Shown here: positions 2,022 through 21,040 of the stretch, one piece after another
How positions within the stretch are numbered: the first letter of the stretch is position 1
How the letters are laid out: each line of letters opens with the position of its first letter
Assembly: GCA_018336015.1 (NCBI GenBank)
Contig: JAGXQZ010000071.1
Location: 124,001-188,000 of the forward strand
Source of the DNA: Algoriphagus sp.
GTDB lineage: Bacteria > Bacteroidota > Bacteroidia > Cytophagales > Cyclobacteriaceae
Reading direction: 5' to 3'
Length of the DNA stretch: 64,000 nucleotides
Position numbers and translations under genes: made by a program
The notes under the pieces: generated by a model
The model's database searches: none
Told to the model about the DNA's origin: nothing
The model's input: only the letters and a program-made list of their open reading frames with translations

Positions 2022-2043
2022 CTGTAATTTTCAAATATTACCT

Positions 2044-2067
2044 AAAAAAACAAGCTTGTCTTTTTTG
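2044..2067 (+). terminator. Weak hairpin with T tract
   Basis: An A-rich arm, the palindrome ACAAGCTTGT and a run of six T residues lie just after the DUF2520 stop. The stem is mostly A-T and the loop is minimal, so this is only a plausible terminator. Confidence 0.4.
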
Positions 2068-2103
2068 AAGAAAAATTTTGTAAAATTCTAATAATCTGAA
2101 ATT

Positions 2104-2111
2104 TACCTTTG
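2104..2111 (+). promoter_or_regulatory. Candidate -7 element of the DUF2589 cluster promoter
   Basis: TACCTTTG is an exact match to the Bacteroidota -7 consensus TAnnTTTG. The nearest TTG (2078-2080) is 23 bases upstream, longer than the 19-21 seen at other promoters in this window, so the assignment is tentative. The predicted leader would be about 115 bases and contains a small hairpin (arms 2167-2172 and 2179-2184). Confidence 0.45.
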
Positions 2112-2231
2112 TAAAAATTTGACTTTCAGGATTTTTATAACTTAAATTCATCAATGTATCGGTGGACAGTGTTGGCAGACACTGCTTGATTTTTGAATTT
2201 CTTTTTTCTCACACTATAAACAATTTTGATT

Positions 2232-2906
2232 ATGAGTTATGCAAATCGCACTCTCCGGTCCCTTCCTTTTGGCAGAATTATAAGCGGACCCATGGTAGCA
2301 GCCATTCAGGCGCAGGCACTGGCAGCCCAGTCTACAGTAAACTTCATCAAAGAAGTAGGATTCAAACGAACAGACGCAACCGCGGCTGCTGGCGAAACAG
2401 CAGATGCTGCAGGTGATATCGGGGAGATTCGAAATGTCACCTTTAAGTTTAAAAGAAAAACTTCTGATGGAAGCAGTGCTAGTGGTACTACATCAGGTGC
2501 AGGAGAAGAGGTGGTAGAACTGACGGTCCCTTTGTTGACCATAGTTCCGATTCCTTATATCCGGATTGACGAGATGACAATCCAGTTTACAGCGAATATT
2601 ACCGAACAGCAGGAGTTCAAAACCTCTGCATCAACGTCAAATAGTGTTTCTACAGACACGACTGTCAATTTTAAGGCTGGTTCATTCCTATCACCCGTAT
2701 CAGTTAGTATGAATGCCAAAGTGTCTACAAGACACAATAGCAACGTGAATACTAGCTCCAGGGTGAATAACTCTACGCAATTTACCATTGATATCAATGT
2801 GAAGGCAGTTCAGGATGAAATGCCGGCTGGTTTGGCCAAAATTCTACACATCATGGAGCAAGCAATCCTAGAGCGTCCTGCTTCTTCCACTCCTCCTGCT
2901 TCCTGA
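2232..2906 (+). CDS. DUF2589 family protein, larger paralog
   Basis: A 224-residue protein recognised as DUF2589, a family without known function. The N-terminal helix has the family pattern SGPMVAAIQAQALAAQST then NFIKEVGF (residues 18-44). A strand with RNVTFKF follows, then TVPLLTIVPIPYIRI (residues 98-112), then an inserted Ser/Thr/Asn-rich stretch (about 130-182), and finally a beta strand with the amphipathic end MPAGLAKILHIMEQAI (197-212). There is no signal peptide or membrane span, so it is probably cytoplasmic. ATG 2232 is chosen over an upstream TTG at 2226. It is the first gene of a four-gene cluster and is about 44 residues longer than its paralog at 4094 because of the central insertion and linkers. 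Confidence 0.85.
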   Translation: MSYANRTLRSLPFGRIISGPMVAAIQAQALAAQSTVNFIKEVGFKRTDATAAAGETADAAGDIGEIRNVTFKFKRKTSDGSSASGTTSGAGEEVVELTVPLLTIVPIPYIRIDEMTIQFTANITEQQEFKTSASTSNSVSTDTTVNFKAGSFLSPVSVSMNAKVSTRHNSNVNTSSRVNNSTQFTIDINVKAVQDEMPAGLAKILHIMEQAILERPASSTPPAS

Positions 2907-2927
2907 TTTTTTAAACGTACTATTTCT

Positions 2928-4082
2928 ATGAGTCAAATGAATCAGATCATTGCTTCATTGCTTAGTGATATTAATGAGGCTAAATCAAAAGCAGATGAGT
3001 CGTCAAGAAATCTCGCGCAGCTATATGCAGCAGATGAAATTTTGAGGTATTTCCCAGTGCCAAAAATCGGGATTCAAAATCTTGAAGTGGAAATCAAGTA
3101 TGCCATAGAATCAGTCGAAGAAAAACCTGTACAAAGCAGTCAGTCTCAACAAAGGCTGACTGCCTTTATTCAAACTTTTTCGAATGATACAGCAAAAGAA
3201 ATCCGAGCTGGCATAAGAAAAGCTATTCAAGAAAATGAATTGTACAAGAGCCTTGGTACTGCTTATCCTCCAGAAGCATGGGAAAAAAGCCTTTCCCAGT
3301 CAATAGAGGATGGATTTATGGGGATTTCAAGGGCTTCGGGTGATTTACAAAAAGCGATCAAAACTTCTTTTGAATCATTCGGTAAAGTTTTGCCTCAGTT
3401 TCTTCCGGTTGCTTATAAATCAGAATCTCTCGCGGCCATACCAAAGGTTTCTGGTGAATATCAACTAGTGGGATTGGCGAAGGATGGTACTCCGGAATTT
3501 ACAGTATCCAAATTATATACTTCAGAAAAAGAAGCATTGATCGATGCAAAAATCCTGAATACTTCGATTTCAACAAAGAAGCTTGAAATCGTTGAAACTA
3601 GGAAAGATACAGTAGCAAAAGTGGATCTGGCCAGGATCAAAACCGGAAATCAGGAGTTCATGATAGAAATGGATAGCCAAAAGGTAGGGGCAGTTCAGCC
3701 CAAAGCCTTTTTTGAAAGATCATTCTCTGAAAAAAGTACAGCTCTGAATACACCCATACGTATCGCACCTTCTTGGTTGAGTGGTAGGATTCCAACAGTA
3801 GGAACTCCCACTCCACCCAGTAGTTCACAGCCTAGTGTCGAATTGAAAGAGGACGATGCATTAAAGGTCATTTCTGAAACAATTATGAAGAAACGCTTAG
3901 CTGATTTGGAGTTTGGGATATCTAAAATTTTGAATGAAAATAAAGCTACCACTATACAAGTAATGGTAGAAAGTGAAAAGTTGAAGCAACTGAAGCCGGA
4001 AAATTTAGCCACTATCAAGTTTTCTCTCAGTGCCCAAGACTTTACCATGATGGATGATGAAAGTAAAAAATCAATTCTTTAA
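2928..4082 (+). CDS. Unknown 384-residue protein of the DUF2589 cluster
   Basis: No named domain is recognised. The N-terminal 30 residues are predicted helical (LLSDINEAKSKADESSRNLA), followed by FPVPKIGIQNLEVEIKYAI (42-60), which resembles the P[IV]P segment of the two DUF2589 neighbours. The middle is mixed alpha/beta. A Pro/Ser-rich linker (TPTPPSSSQPS) precedes a C-terminal alpha/beta section. There is no signal peptide, transmembrane helix or catalytic motif visible. It lies 21 bases after the first DUF2589 gene and 11 bases before the second, so co-transcription is very likely. It may be an accessory or scaffold partner of the DUF2589 proteins; this is inference from context and the shared motif. 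Confidence 0.8.
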   Translation: MSQMNQIIASLLSDINEAKSKADESSRNLAQLYAADEILRYFPVPKIGIQNLEVEIKYAIESVEEKPVQSSQSQQRLTAFIQTFSNDTAKEIRAGIRKAIQENELYKSLGTAYPPEAWEKSLSQSIEDGFMGISRASGDLQKAIKTSFESFGKVLPQFLPVAYKSESLAAIPKVSGEYQLVGLAKDGTPEFTVSKLYTSEKEALIDAKILNTSISTKKLEIVETRKDTVAKVDLARIKTGNQEFMIEMDSQKVGAVQPKAFFERSFSEKSTALNTPIRIAPSWLSGRIPTVGTPTPPSSSQPSVELKEDDALKVISETIMKKRLADLEFGISKILNENKATTIQVMVESEKLKQLKPENLATIKFSLSAQDFTMMDDESKKSIL

Positions 4083-4093
4083 CCTTACTTCCT

Positions 4094-4624
4094 ATGATTA
4101 CTCCACGTTTTATTTCTGATCTTTTGGGTGCCCCAATGGCGGCAGTTGTTCAGGCGGAAGCTATTGCGGCAAGAGCCACTGCAGACTTTATCAAGGAGGT
4201 TGGGTTTTCTAATGGAGGAGATGCTACTTCTTCAGATTACGGCACCGTAAGAAATATTTCTTTTACTTACAACCGAGTGAATCCGGATGGAACTTCCCAA
4301 AATGCAAGTATCACTGTCCCACTTTTAACCATCATTCCTATTCCTTCCTTAAGAGTTGCTGAGGCTGAAATAGAATTTGACTTAGCACTTACTCAGCCTG
4401 ATATCCATACGAATGGCGGAGGAAGCTCCTCCTCAGGCAACCAGATTTTTGACCTTAGAAATCAGCTTAAGTTAAAAGGTATTTTGGCTAAAAAGCCTGT
4501 TCCAAATGCTCCTGCAACTTCCACGACAGCAAATATGACAGTCAAGATTAAGCTCGCTCAGGCAGAACCTACCCTAGGAATGGTACAGCTGCTCAATATT
4601 TTGGATGGTGCAAAAAAAGAATGA
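4094..4624 (+). CDS. DUF2589 family protein, shorter paralog
   Basis: A 176-residue protein with the same architecture as the product at 2232: the N-terminal GAPMAAVVQAEAIAARATA and DFIKEVGF (13-38), RNISFTY (53-59), the core TVPLLTIIPIPSLRV (74-88), a short Gly/Ser loop (107-116), and the C-terminal LGMVQLLNIL. It lacks the long Ser/Thr/Asn insertion of the larger paralog. No export signal is seen. Its stop codon overlaps the next start in an ATGA junction, which suggests translational coupling with the small double-CxxC protein. The function of the family is unknown. Confidence 0.85.
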   Translation: MITPRFISDLLGAPMAAVVQAEAIAARATADFIKEVGFSNGGDATSSDYGTVRNISFTYNRVNPDGTSQNASITVPLLTIIPIPSLRVAEAEIEFDLALTQPDIHTNGGGSSSSGNQIFDLRNQLKLKGILAKKPVPNAPATSTTANMTVKIKLAQAEPTLGMVQLLNILDGAKKE

Positions 4625-4953
4625 TCATGTGGAATTGGTTGATAAAAATCAAAAACTGGATATCCGGTTTCTTTCAAAAGAAAGAAATTGGAGCTGTCAA
4701 ATCAGCTGCAATTTCAGAGCGAACGCCAGAAGTAGAGATTTCAAGAGCTCCAGGCATCAATTGTCCAGAGTGCACTACCAGACTTGTAGTGAGTATCCAG
4801 CATCTTATCAGTCTTGAGCCAGTTATTTGTCCTTCTTGCGGGCTTGAATTGCAGATCGATGCCCAAAAATCTCAAGGAGCTCTCGAATCCTTACGAAAGC
4901 TCCAGTCTGGGCTCAACCAAGCGGCAAAGGTCCGTCAAGAATCTCAATTGTGA
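4621..4953 (+). CDS. Small double-CxxC (zinc-ribbon-like) protein of the DUF2589 cluster
   Basis: A 110-residue protein. The Trp/Lys-rich N-terminus (WNWLIKIKNWISGFFQKK) could form an amphipathic helix. A CPEC...CPSC pair (C48, C51, C70, C73) separated by 18 residues looks like a zinc ribbon, and the C-terminus is a polar helix. It starts 4 bases inside the DUF2589 gene (ATGA), or alternatively at ATG 4627. Its stop codon directly abuts the stop of the convergent pirin gene: TGA and the complementary TCA form TGATCA with no spacer. Zinc binding is inferred from the cysteine spacing; partner and function are unknown. Confidence 0.8.
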   Translation: MIMWNWLIKIKNWISGFFQKKEIGAVKSAAISERTPEVEISRAPGINCPECTTRLVVSIQHLISLEPVICPSCGLELQIDAQKSQGALESLRKLQSGLNQAAKVRQESQL

Positions 4954-19216: not shown

Positions 19217-19267
19217 CCATCCGTTAACGTTACAAGGGTATCAGATCAATGAAATGTTAACTCAGTT

Positions 19268-19350
19268 GGGGGAATACCAAAGCGGCCAACTGGGACGGAC
19301 TGTAAATCCGTTGACTTATGTCTTCACAGGTTCGAATCCTGTTTCCCCCA
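19268..19350 (+). tRNA. tRNA-Tyr (GTA)
   Basis: An 83-base class II tRNA: acceptor arms GGGGGAA and TTCCCCC, anticodon stem ACGGA/TCCGT with loop CTGTAAA (anticodon GTA), a long variable arm, and the T loop GGTTCGAATCC. The CCA end is not exactly encoded. First of three tRNA genes leading to tuf. Confidence 0.95.
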
Positions 19351-19355
19351 CCCAG

Positions 19356-19387
19356 TTGCCTAATTGCAAAATTTTTTTCTAGTTTTG
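19356..19387 (+). promoter_or_regulatory. Second tRNA promoter, before tRNA-Gly
   Basis: TTG (19356-19358), 21 bases, then TAGTTTTG (19380-19387). It lies between tRNA-Tyr and tRNA-Gly and would drive tRNA-Gly, tRNA-Thr and tuf. Confidence 0.7.
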
Positions 19388-19419
19388 CAGGGCCAAAATA
19401 TCCGGGTTACCGGAAATAA

Positions 19420-19492
19420 GCGGGAGTAGCTCAGTTGGTAGAGCGGCAGCCTTCCAAGCTGCAGGTCGCGGGTTCGAGCCTCGTCTCCCGCT
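19420..19492 (+). tRNA. tRNA-Gly (TCC)
   Basis: 73 bases. Acceptor GCGGGAG/CTCCCGC; anticodon stem GCAGC/GCTGC with loop CTTCCAA gives anticodon TCC; standard D arm (AGCTCAGTTGGTAGAGC) and T loop. Discriminator T. CCA is not encoded. Confidence 0.96.
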
Positions 19493-19524
19493 CTGTGCTT
19501 TTATAAGTACACTGCGTAGTGCAA

Positions 19525-19596
19525 GCCGACGTAGCTCAGGGGTAGAGTACTTCCTTGGTAAGGAAGGGGTCACGGGTTCAATTCCCGTCGTTGGCT
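19525..19596 (+). tRNA. tRNA-Thr (GGT)
   Basis: 72 bases. Acceptor GCCGACG/CGTTGGC with one G-T pair; anticodon stem CTTCC/GGAAG with loop TTGGTAA gives anticodon GGT. It ends 57 bases before the tuf start with no terminator, so tuf is probably transcribed with it. Confidence 0.95.
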
Positions 19597-19653
19597 CAAC
19601 ACAGAAATTATTATCTAAACATATCTTTAAACTTAAACTGAGGATTTTCACGC

Positions 19654-20841
19654 ATGGCAAAAGCAACCTTCGACCGTTCCAAGCCGCACGTTAACATCGG
19701 TACGATTGGACACGTAGACCATGGCAAAACTACCCTGACTGCCGCCATCACTACCGTTTTGGCTAAAAAAGGTCTTTCTGAATTGAGAGATTTCTCTTCT
19801 ATTGACAACGCTCCTGAAGAGAAAGAAAGAGGTATTACTATCAATACTTCTCACGTAGAATATCAGACTGAAAACAGACACTACGCTCACGTAGACTGTC
19901 CAGGTCACGCTGACTACGTTAAAAACATGGTTACTGGTGCTGCTCAAATGGACGGTGCTATCCTTGTTGTAGCTGCTACTGACGGTCCAATGCCACAGAC
20001 TCGCGAGCACATCCTTTTGGCTCGTCAGGTAGGTGTACCTCAGCTTGTAGTTTTCTTGAACAAAGTCGACATGGTTGACGATCCAGAATTGTTGGAACTT
20101 GTTGAAATGGAAGTTAGAGAGCTTCTTTCTTTCTATGAATTTGACGGTGATAACATTCCTGTGATTGCTGGTTCTGCTCTTGGAGCTTTGAATGGTGAAG
20201 AAAAGTGGGTTGAGACTGTAATGCAGTTGATGAACGCAGTTGATACTTACATTCCTCTTCCTGAGCGATTGATCGACAAAGACTTCTTGATGCCAGTTGA
20301 AGACGTGTTTTCAATCACTGGTCGTGGTACAGTTGCTACAGGCCGTATTGAAAGAGGTGTTATCAACTCTGGTGATCCAGTTGAAATCATCGGTATGGGT
20401 GCTGAAGGACTTAAGTCTACAGTTACTGGTGTTGAAATGTTCCGTAAGATCCTTGACAGAGGTGAAGCTGGTGATAACGTAGGTTTGTTGTTGAGAGGTA
20501 TCGAAAAATCTCAAATCAAGCGTGGTATGATTATCTGTAAGCCAGGTTCAGTGAAGCCACATGCTCACTTCAAGGCTGAAGTTTATGTGCTTTCAAAAGA
20601 AGAAGGTGGACGTCACACTCCTTTCTTCAACAAATACAGACCTCAGTTCTACCTGAGAACAACAGACGTAACTGGAGAAATTAAACTTCCAGCTAACGTT
20701 GAAATGGTTATGCCAGGTGATAACGTAACTATCGAGGTTACTTTGTTGTCAGCAGTAGCTCTAGAGAAAGGTTTGAGATTCGCTATCCGTGAAGGTGGTC
20801 GTACAGTAGGTGCCGGTCAGGTTACTGAAATTCTCGACTAA
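19654..20841 (+). CDS. tuf: Elongation factor Tu
   Basis: A 395-residue GTPase that delivers aminoacyl-tRNA to the ribosome. G-domain motifs [17 protein letters not shown] and NKVDMVDD are present; domains II/III contain [13 protein letters not shown] and [18 protein letters not shown]. Normal length. It is preceded by tRNA genes in probable co-transcription and followed by a strong hairpin, then tRNA-Trp and secE. Confidence 0.99.
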
Positions 20842-20861
20842 TCAATCTTAATCATATAATT

Positions 20862-20900
20862 AAATGCGATCCCGAAGAATATTTTGGGATCGCATTTGTT
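20862..20900 (+). terminator. Terminator after tuf
   Basis: A perfect 12-bp stem (20862-20873 with 20886-20897) and a 12-base loop. Its distal arm overlaps the -33 TTG of the next promoter (20896-20898). Confidence 0.75.
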
Positions 20901-20925
20901 TCTAAAGACATTATTTCTAATTTTG
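20896..20925 (+). promoter_or_regulatory. Promoter of tRNA-Trp/secE/nusG and downstream genes
   Basis: TTG (20896-20898), 19 bases, then TAATTTTG (20918-20925); the tRNA-Trp gene begins 27 bases later. Exact consensus in sequence and spacing. Confidence 0.8.
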
Positions 20926-20952
20926 CGTTCCGTTTTCGGGCGTACATTTTAC

Positions 20953-21023
20953 ACGGGCATAGTTCAATGGCAGAATAGCGGTCTCCAAAACCGTTGATGG
21001 GAGTTCGAATCTCTCTGCCCGTG
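20953..21023 (+). tRNA. tRNA-Trp (CCA)
   Basis: 71 bases. Acceptor ACGGGCA/TGCCCGT, anticodon stem GCGGT/ACCGT with loop CTCCAAA (anticodon CCA), discriminator G, standard T arm. It lies between tuf and secE, a common bacterial arrangement, 17 bases before the secE start. Confidence 0.96.
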
Positions 21024-21040
21024 CAGTAAGAAGATAGACT

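What the first reader, a model, noticed from the sequence alone, without database searches (positions are those of the whole stretch)
2232..4953. Four-gene DUF2589 cluster with a double-CxxC partner: candidate undescribed system
Two DUF2589 paralogs bracket a 384-residue protein without a known domain, and a small CxxC-x18-CxxC protein is coupled by an ATGA overlap. All are co-oriented with gaps of 21, 11 and -4 bases. The tight packing and two diverged paralogs suggest a multi-subunit assembly. Families and gene order are seen; assembly is inference. I know of no assigned function for DUF2589.
Basis: partly seen in the sequence, partly recalled or inferred. Interest (0 to 1): 0.75.

Follow-up and report, generated by a model that had tools for sequence, protein, structure and literature searches.

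The report
Undescribed DUF2589 four-gene module
Four neighbouring genes in an Algoriphagus-type bacterium form one unit whose core recurs, in the same order, in very different bacteria and in archaea, sometimes beside cell-wall-cutting enzymes, yet it has no known function.

Summary
In detail: W1-W2-W3-W4 (2232-4953), co-oriented, spaced +21, +11 and -4 bases; W1 and W3 match PF11655/DUF2589. W2 is not unrelated: its N-terminal part is a distant DUF2589 relative and its middle resembles YegP/UPF0339 in fold. W4 is a four-cysteine ribbon (cysteines invariant in 13 of 13 aligned sequences) with an amphipathic start. The genes behave as one cassette, present or absent at one site in the genus. 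Outside the genus the order persists: A-B in 106 of 131 collected loci, always on one strand, followed by a helical C protein (69 loci) or by a second DUF2589 plus a W4-like ribbon (18 loci, some fetched twice); the tree mixes phyla and archaea. In 9 of 53 dereplicated loci a phage-type peptidoglycan hydrolase lies nearby; none was found in the other 44 or beside the window's genes. Best reading: a paralogue-built, membrane-docked complex that in some lineages handles signal-less lytic enzymes. Complex: likely, unproven. Function: a guess (0.35). One open paper mentions DUF2589, without a function.

The parts
2232..2906 (+). W1 = A, DUF2589 protein (224 aa)
   Evidence: PF11655 E 2.2e-30; low-confidence model: N-terminal helices, long strands, C-terminal helix, pLDDT 62
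2268..2360 (+). W1 long N-terminal helix (residues 13-43), strongly conserved (IxGPxxAAIxAQxxAAxxTxxFI)
2928..4082 (+). W2 = B, distant DUF2589 relative with a large insert (384 aa)
   Evidence: hhalign A3 vs A4 prob 76, E 2.2e-5; model pLDDT 86.9
3423..3854 (+). W2 residues 166-309: YegP/UPF0339-like fold
   Evidence: VIA-align Z 8.2, rmsd 3.2, 106 residues to 2k49; Z 7.6 to 2k8e; next row Z 5.3 (the tool warns that best Z of 7-8 is common without true kinship); Foldseek prob 0.99 but E 0.08-0.10; not seen by sequence
4094..4624 (+). W3 = A', second DUF2589 protein (176 aa)
   Evidence: PF11655 E 1.3e-22
4621..4953 (+). W4 = Z, four-cysteine ribbon protein (110 aa; the start may be 4627)
   Evidence: C48, C51, C70, C73 invariant in 13 of 13 aligned sequences, window included (13 of 19 detected were aligned); no family over its cut-off
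4627..4680 (+). W4 amphipathic, aromatic-rich N-terminal segment (residues 3-20)
   Evidence: helical moment 0.55, reached by 42 of 500 shuffles of its own first 40 residues; the median of 12 Z sequences is reached by 4.3% of 1417 background N-termini
2022..4953 (+). The presence/absence cassette between the DUF2520-like gene and the pirin-like gene (flank names recalled)
   Evidence: Of 30 genus loci: 6 with the module, 14 with pirin-like and 6 with M20-like gene directly after the flanking gene, 4 with neither; aligned ends of the flanking and pirin-like genes are 2-9 bases apart in the 14

Best explanation
W1, W2 and W3 are three related subunits (A, B, A'), each with a long N-terminal helix and beta strands, that co-assemble into a cytoplasmic hetero-oligomer; the ribbon protein W4 docks it on the membrane through its amphipathic N-terminal helix. 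The core is an exchangeable platform spread partly by horizontal transfer. In a minority of lineages it is paired with a cargo gene, most often a phage-type peptidoglycan hydrolase without an evident signal peptide, which it would hold, position or help across the membrane. Shown: gene unit, conservation of order, A/B kinship (distant), presence or absence as a cassette, lysin-type genes near 9 of 53 loci. Inferred: oligomer, membrane docking, cargo handling, and that the window's copy, which has no recognised lysin beside it, acts on something encoded elsewhere.
For: A-B adjacency in 106 of 131 loci, 106 of 106 on one strand, median gap 55; B-C 69 of 69, median gap 7; A-Z 19 of 19, median gap -1 (A is present in every locus by the way they were collected). 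A/B kinship. A and B distances correlate over 68 loci, Mantel r 0.88, 0 of 1000 permutations as high. Cassette behaviour. Ten peptidoglycan-hydrolase-type genes among 390 genes within 3.5 kb against 0 of 266 farther ones (one-sided Fisher p 0.005), with varied domains: LysM, Amidase_2, M15, CHAP, PG_binding_1, GH108, Muramidase, Amidase_3. Nine of the ten have N-termini that by eye do not look like signal peptides. The window-like A-B-A'-Z form is followed, one gene on, by an endolysin in L221 and directly by LysM and amidase genes in L073. Z amphipathic N-terminus; in L221 Z lacks it and the next gene carries a similar one (moment 0.56, 48 of 500 shuffles).
Against: No such gene was found near 44 of 53 dereplicated loci, and none was noticed beside the Algoriphagus-type or archaeal modules; archaea lack bacterial peptidoglycan. 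The count is biased: near genes were found by reading and Pfam, far genes only by phmmer with the near lysins as queries; the control family scans show only 25 of 112 Pfam and 25 of 58 PHROG families. L060 and one L073 protein match only wall-binding domains, and L159 and L221 are similar to each other. L048's longest frame starts with a hydrophobic stretch, so it may have a signal. W1's model is poor. No complex was modelled. The amphipathic segment of W4 is unremarkable against its own shuffles.
Confidence: 0.35

Rival explanations
1. A conserved intracellular complex with a general function (chaperone-like, stress or storage), unconnected with lytic enzymes; the lysins are incidental passengers of mobile regions.
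For: No lysin found near 44 of 53 loci; present in archaea. Weak SecB-like ranking for W1 (Foldseek E 0.029, TM 0.2; VIA Z 4.0).
Against: The lysin-type genes carry several different domains in unrelated phyla, which accidental hitch-hiking explains poorly; the SecB match is within the noise of the search.
Confidence: 0.3
2. A defence or abortive-infection module whose effector varies (patatin, trypsin-like, subtilase, lysin).
For: Patchy presence (12 of 59 genomes of the genus); a patatin upstream in Chryseobacterium matches PADLOC phospholipase effector models, E 2.4e-61; trypsin and subtilase neighbours.
Against: None of W1-W3 matches PADLOC, and W4 only at E 0.0041. 119 operon-like neighbours match 13 PADLOC families, 118 distal controls 16, so no excess.
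Confidence: 0.15
3. A holin-endolysin type release cassette (type 10 secretion-like), the DUF2589 proteins replacing the holin.
For: Endolysin-type genes beside some modules, and large toxin-like genes near a few; holin/endolysin secretion of folded proteins is reviewed in PMC9527704 (abstract and outline seen) and reported in PMC10847048 (search listing with start of abstract).
Against: No clear transmembrane helix: the median best 19-residue hydropathy of 179 A proteins is 1.34; 26 exceed 1.6 and were not examined one by one; W1 peaks at 1.62 at residue 94, modelled as strand. No lysin found at most loci.
Confidence: 0.12
4. A contractile-injection or tailocin accessory.
For: A long tail-fibre-like gene (label by eye) downstream in Chryseobacterium L139 with a sub-threshold BppL_N match; the third structural row for W2 is an Anabaena injection-system baseplate, Z 5.3.
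Against: No sheath or tube family among the neighbour families shown (25 of 124); the Z is within the noise.
Confidence: 0.05

Closest known systems
PF11655 (DUF2589)
   Same: W1 and W3 are members well above the cut-off
   Different: The Pfam entry is described as of unknown function; here the family is part of a multi-gene module with a related B protein
Archaeoglobus AF0414-AF0417, 'DUF2589 related' short genes (PMC3949148, one passage read)
   Same: A cluster of short DUF2589-related genes, upregulated with lactate in that study
   Different: Whether these are the A-A'-B form seen here in 7 archaeal loci was not tested
YegP / UPF0339 (2k49, 2k8e)
   Same: Fold of W2 residues 166-309
   Different: No sequence match; embedded in a DUF2589-like protein
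Holin-endolysin (type 10) secretion cassettes
   Same: Endolysin-type genes near some modules
   Different: No clear membrane-spanning subunit in the module
LysW-type zinc ribbons
   Same: CxxC...CxxC arrangement in W4
   Different: Score 18.5 against cut-offs of 27 and 75

Membership tests
PF11655 DUF2589 | Score over the curated cut-off of 23 bits (W1, W3) | tested here: met
   W1 106.5 bits, W3 81.2 bits
PF11655 DUF2589 | W2 is itself a PF11655 member | tested here: not met
   No PF11655 hit at E up to 1; only distant profile similarity
Holin / type 10 secretion cassette | Membrane-spanning holin | tested here: inconclusive
   Best 19-residue hydropathy of W1-W4: 1.62, 0.73, 1.53, 1.41; the W1 peak is modelled as strand in a weak model; 26 of 179 A proteins exceed 1.6 and were not examined
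Holin / type 10 secretion cassette | Adjacent endolysin | tested here: inconclusive
   Found near 9 of 53 dereplicated loci; none recognised beside the window's genes
Known anti-phage defence systems (PADLOC) | W1-W4 match a defence model | tested here: not met
   W1, W2, W3 no match; W4 only E 0.0041
YegP / UPF0339 | Fold of W2 166-309 | tested here: inconclusive
   Z 8.2 and 7.6, Foldseek prob 0.99, but E 0.08-0.10 and no sequence match
SecB-like chaperone | SecB fold in W1 | tested here: inconclusive
   Foldseek best E 0.029 with TM 0.20; VIA Z 4.0 on a pLDDT 62 model
Contractile injection system | Sheath, tube or baseplate genes with the module | tested here: inconclusive
   Not among the families shown (25 of 124 shown)
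Hetero-oligomeric complex | Physical interaction of W1-W4 | not testable with these tools
   No multimer prediction available; gene-level evidence only
R-body (Reb) proteins | RebB homology | not tested
   Considered from recall only

The most novel reading that the evidence does not exclude
DUF2589 proteins are the founding subunits of a new, non-membrane-spanning class of effector-handling machine, built from related A, B and A' subunits, docked on the membrane by a ribbon adaptor and shared by bacteria and archaea, into which lineages plug different signal-less lytic or toxic enzymes.
Probability: 0.2. Interest if true: 0.85.

Novelty: categorically new. Interest (0 to 1): 0.6.

Why it matters
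A gene module kept in the same order across bacteria and archaea, with related subunits and, in several unrelated lineages, cell-wall hydrolases beside it, fits none of the systems tested. If it handles such enzymes it would be a new answer to how proteins without export signals reach the envelope. If it is something else, the conserved gene set and the clean present/absent genomes of Algoriphagus still make a function-unknown family directly testable.

Tried and rejected
Phage origin: no PHROG match for W1-W3 and only weak unknown-function matches for W4, best E 8.5e-5; two distinct viral contigs in two viral scans. One unverified faecal 'phage' record (MT839761.1) carries the module with an endolysin, but 4 kb cannot show whether it is phage DNA. 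Defence: PADLOC scans gave no excess. Pore-forming toxin: one NCBIfam match at E 0.54, treated as noise. SecB: not above noise. Csm1_N for W2, E 0.11: noise. Profile matches of the W2 insert to DAAM1 (E 0.004) and of B to designed proteins (E 0.03): not followed. A Bacteroidetes-type promoter pattern (recalled motif) was not found upstream of W1. The module and flank trees of 10 loci share 4 of 7 splits; of the rest, one conflict is well supported on both sides (0.998 against 0.994), so plain vertical descent within the genus is not shown and gain against loss is open. One of the 12 positive genus genomes (G1582) has a single partial DUF2589 match instead of two. Plasmid and phage searches with W1 found 0 and 1 records; plasmids with two other queries found 5 each, the same five records. 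A search for UPF0339/DUF1508 papers gave 7 listings, none opened. The A tree has two very long branches (L138, L084) that may be misplaced; phylum labels are more clustered than shuffled ones (0 of 200 as low), so transfer is partial. Gene calls in fetched loci are longest open frames, not curated starts. Bulk family scans used alignments A5 (119) and A6 (118) of unrelated proteins only as containers. L089, with a papain-type neighbour, fell out of the 53 by dereplication; L206's neighbour looks M15-like from recall but matched no Pfam family and was not counted.

Full report
THE OBSERVATION. Four co-oriented reading frames at 2232-2906, 2928-4082, 4094-4624 and 4621-4953 are present as described, spaced +21, +11 and -4. 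W1 and W3 match PF11655 at E 2.2e-30 and 1.3e-22; W2 and W4 match no family over its cut-off. pN is far below pS in 20 of 20 gene-by-relative comparisons, though most dS values are saturated. Most relatives of W4 start at the window's third W4 codon, so the coupled start is not certain.

ONE CASSETTE. Four relatives fetched from the genus carry the same four genes after the same upstream gene; downstream is the pirin-like gene in three and the M20-like gene in the fourth, L012. Nine Algoriphagus or Cyclobacteriaceae contigs of the genome collection also carry A-B-A'-Z; four of them are the same genomes. In a sample of 59 genomes of the genus 12 have DUF2589, 11 of them twice, one (G1582) as a single partial match. 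Among 30 loci centred on the upstream flanking gene, 6 show W1 and W2 directly after it; in 14 the convergent pirin-like gene follows at once (aligned ends 2-9 bases apart), in 6 the M20-like gene, and in 4 neither. These loci are too short to show W3 and W4. Flanking gene names other than the lipoamide-dehydrogenase-type one (Pyr_redox_2 among the scanned neighbours) are recalled from sequence, not scanned.

BEYOND THE GENUS. The genome scan kept 80 loci of 150 confirmed. With loci from whole-genome searches, plasmids and viral contigs, 131 loci were classed: A-B-C 69, A-B-A'-Z 18, A alone 9, A-A'-B 7, A-A 5, A-B-A' 5, A-B 5, A-A-S 4, A-S 2, A-S-A 2 and five single forms. Some loci end at a contig end, some genomes were fetched twice, and A is present by the way the loci were collected; dereplication at 70% identity leaves 53. 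All adjacent module genes lie on one strand. DUF2589 is uncommon: 20 of 296 genomes sampled from the window's phylum, and 7 of 299, 13 of 196, 1 of 296, 5 of 148 and 2 of 299 in the phyla of five other loci (each count includes the centre, itself positive), with 0 of 14 control genomes. The A tree of 68 rows (near-copies left out) needs 31 changes of phylum label against a minimum of 15 and a shuffled mean of 42.5; archaeal rows lie among gammaproteobacterial ones. This fits transfer on top of inheritance but is no proof.

PROTEINS. The A and B profiles align over the N-terminal helix and the PIPxIRIxE strand (prob 76, E 2.2e-5). The W2 model is good (pLDDT 86.9); its residues 166-309 resemble YegP/UPF0339 (Z 8.2 and 7.6, next row 5.3), a level the tool calls common without kinship, and without sequence support. 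The W1 model is poor (62.3) and its matches are noise-level. W4 has four cysteines invariant in 13 of 13 aligned sequences and an aromatic amphipathic start; the median moment of 12 sequences is reached by 4.3% of 1417 other N-termini, though single rows, the window's included, are less striking against their own shuffles: 0 to 87 of 500 as high, the window 42.

NEIGHBOURS. In 9 of 53 dereplicated loci (L048, L060, L073, L105, L130, L143, L159, L203, L221) a peptidoglycan-hydrolase-type gene lies within 3.5 kb: 10 of 390 near genes, 0 of 266 far genes (p 0.005). For operon-like neighbours it is 9 of 119 against 0 of 266 (p 2e-5). The comparison is biased because the queries came from the near genes; family scans of 118 control genes list no peptidoglycan hydrolase among the 25 families shown but do not show the rest. 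L060 and one L073 protein match only wall-binding domains. By eye nine of the ten begin without a signal peptide; L048's longest frame starts with a hydrophobic stretch and is ambiguous. Other neighbours: patatin with M15 peptidase in Chryseobacterium (10 loci including one viral contig), subtilase, trypsin, papain, ricin-type lectin, a Tle1-like phospholipase and an SpvB-type protein. No lysin was found near the other 44 loci, and none was noticed by the Algoriphagus-type or archaeal modules; those genes were not all scanned one by one.

READING. Conserved order, related subunits and cassette behaviour make a complex the simplest reading; its job is not shown. Handling of signal-less lytic enzymes is the best-supported guess (0.35), with a general-purpose complex a close rival (0.3). 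Classical holin function is disfavoured by the lack of a clear transmembrane helix, known defence systems by the PADLOC scans.

LITERATURE. 'DUF2589' occurs in one paper of the held library, in a passage on Archaeoglobus genes AF0414-AF0417 raised with lactate (PMC3949148); 'PF11655' in none. A search for the AF gene names gave no further relevant title among the 10 of 26 papers listed. Most subscription journals and preprints are not in that library. PMC9527704 was seen as abstract and outline, PMC10847048 only in the listing.

Noticed in passing
L157 (NZ_CP117031.1) and L160 (NZ_OY808999.1): DUF2589 genes with a ~91-aa partner (S) on two Vibrio plasmids lie within about 9 kb of genes annotated as TcdA/TcdB-domain proteins; only the annotation was read.
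   Followed up: no
L095:6901-7737 and L096:312-866: Recombinase-like genes (label by eye) beside A-B-C modules in Treponema and Lachnoclostridium, with DUF261 downstream (and in L096 a ricin-type lectin), suggesting mobile units.
   Followed up: partly
L105, L112, L119, L122, L124-L127, L139, L142: Chryseobacterium DUF2589 loci are preceded by an M15 peptidase and a CapV-like patatin, with no cyclase noticed in the stretch.
   Followed up: partly
L080:10193-10744, L108:10055-10606, L081:2048-2305: A family (about 183 aa in two loci, QVNVNTGTxxSPxIVAAN) follows A-B-C in gammaproteobacteria and a methanogen; no Pfam match for L080.
   Followed up: partly
L077:9844-10356, L138:1728-2285, L084:7464-7949: A small helical-looking protein follows A-B-A' in Nocardioides and a Prolixibacteraceae bacterium and precedes the module in a Pirellulaceae bacterium (clustered together).
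   Followed up: no
window 19267-21024: Four tRNA genes (Tyr, Gly, Thr, Trp) in the same orientation.
   Followed up: no
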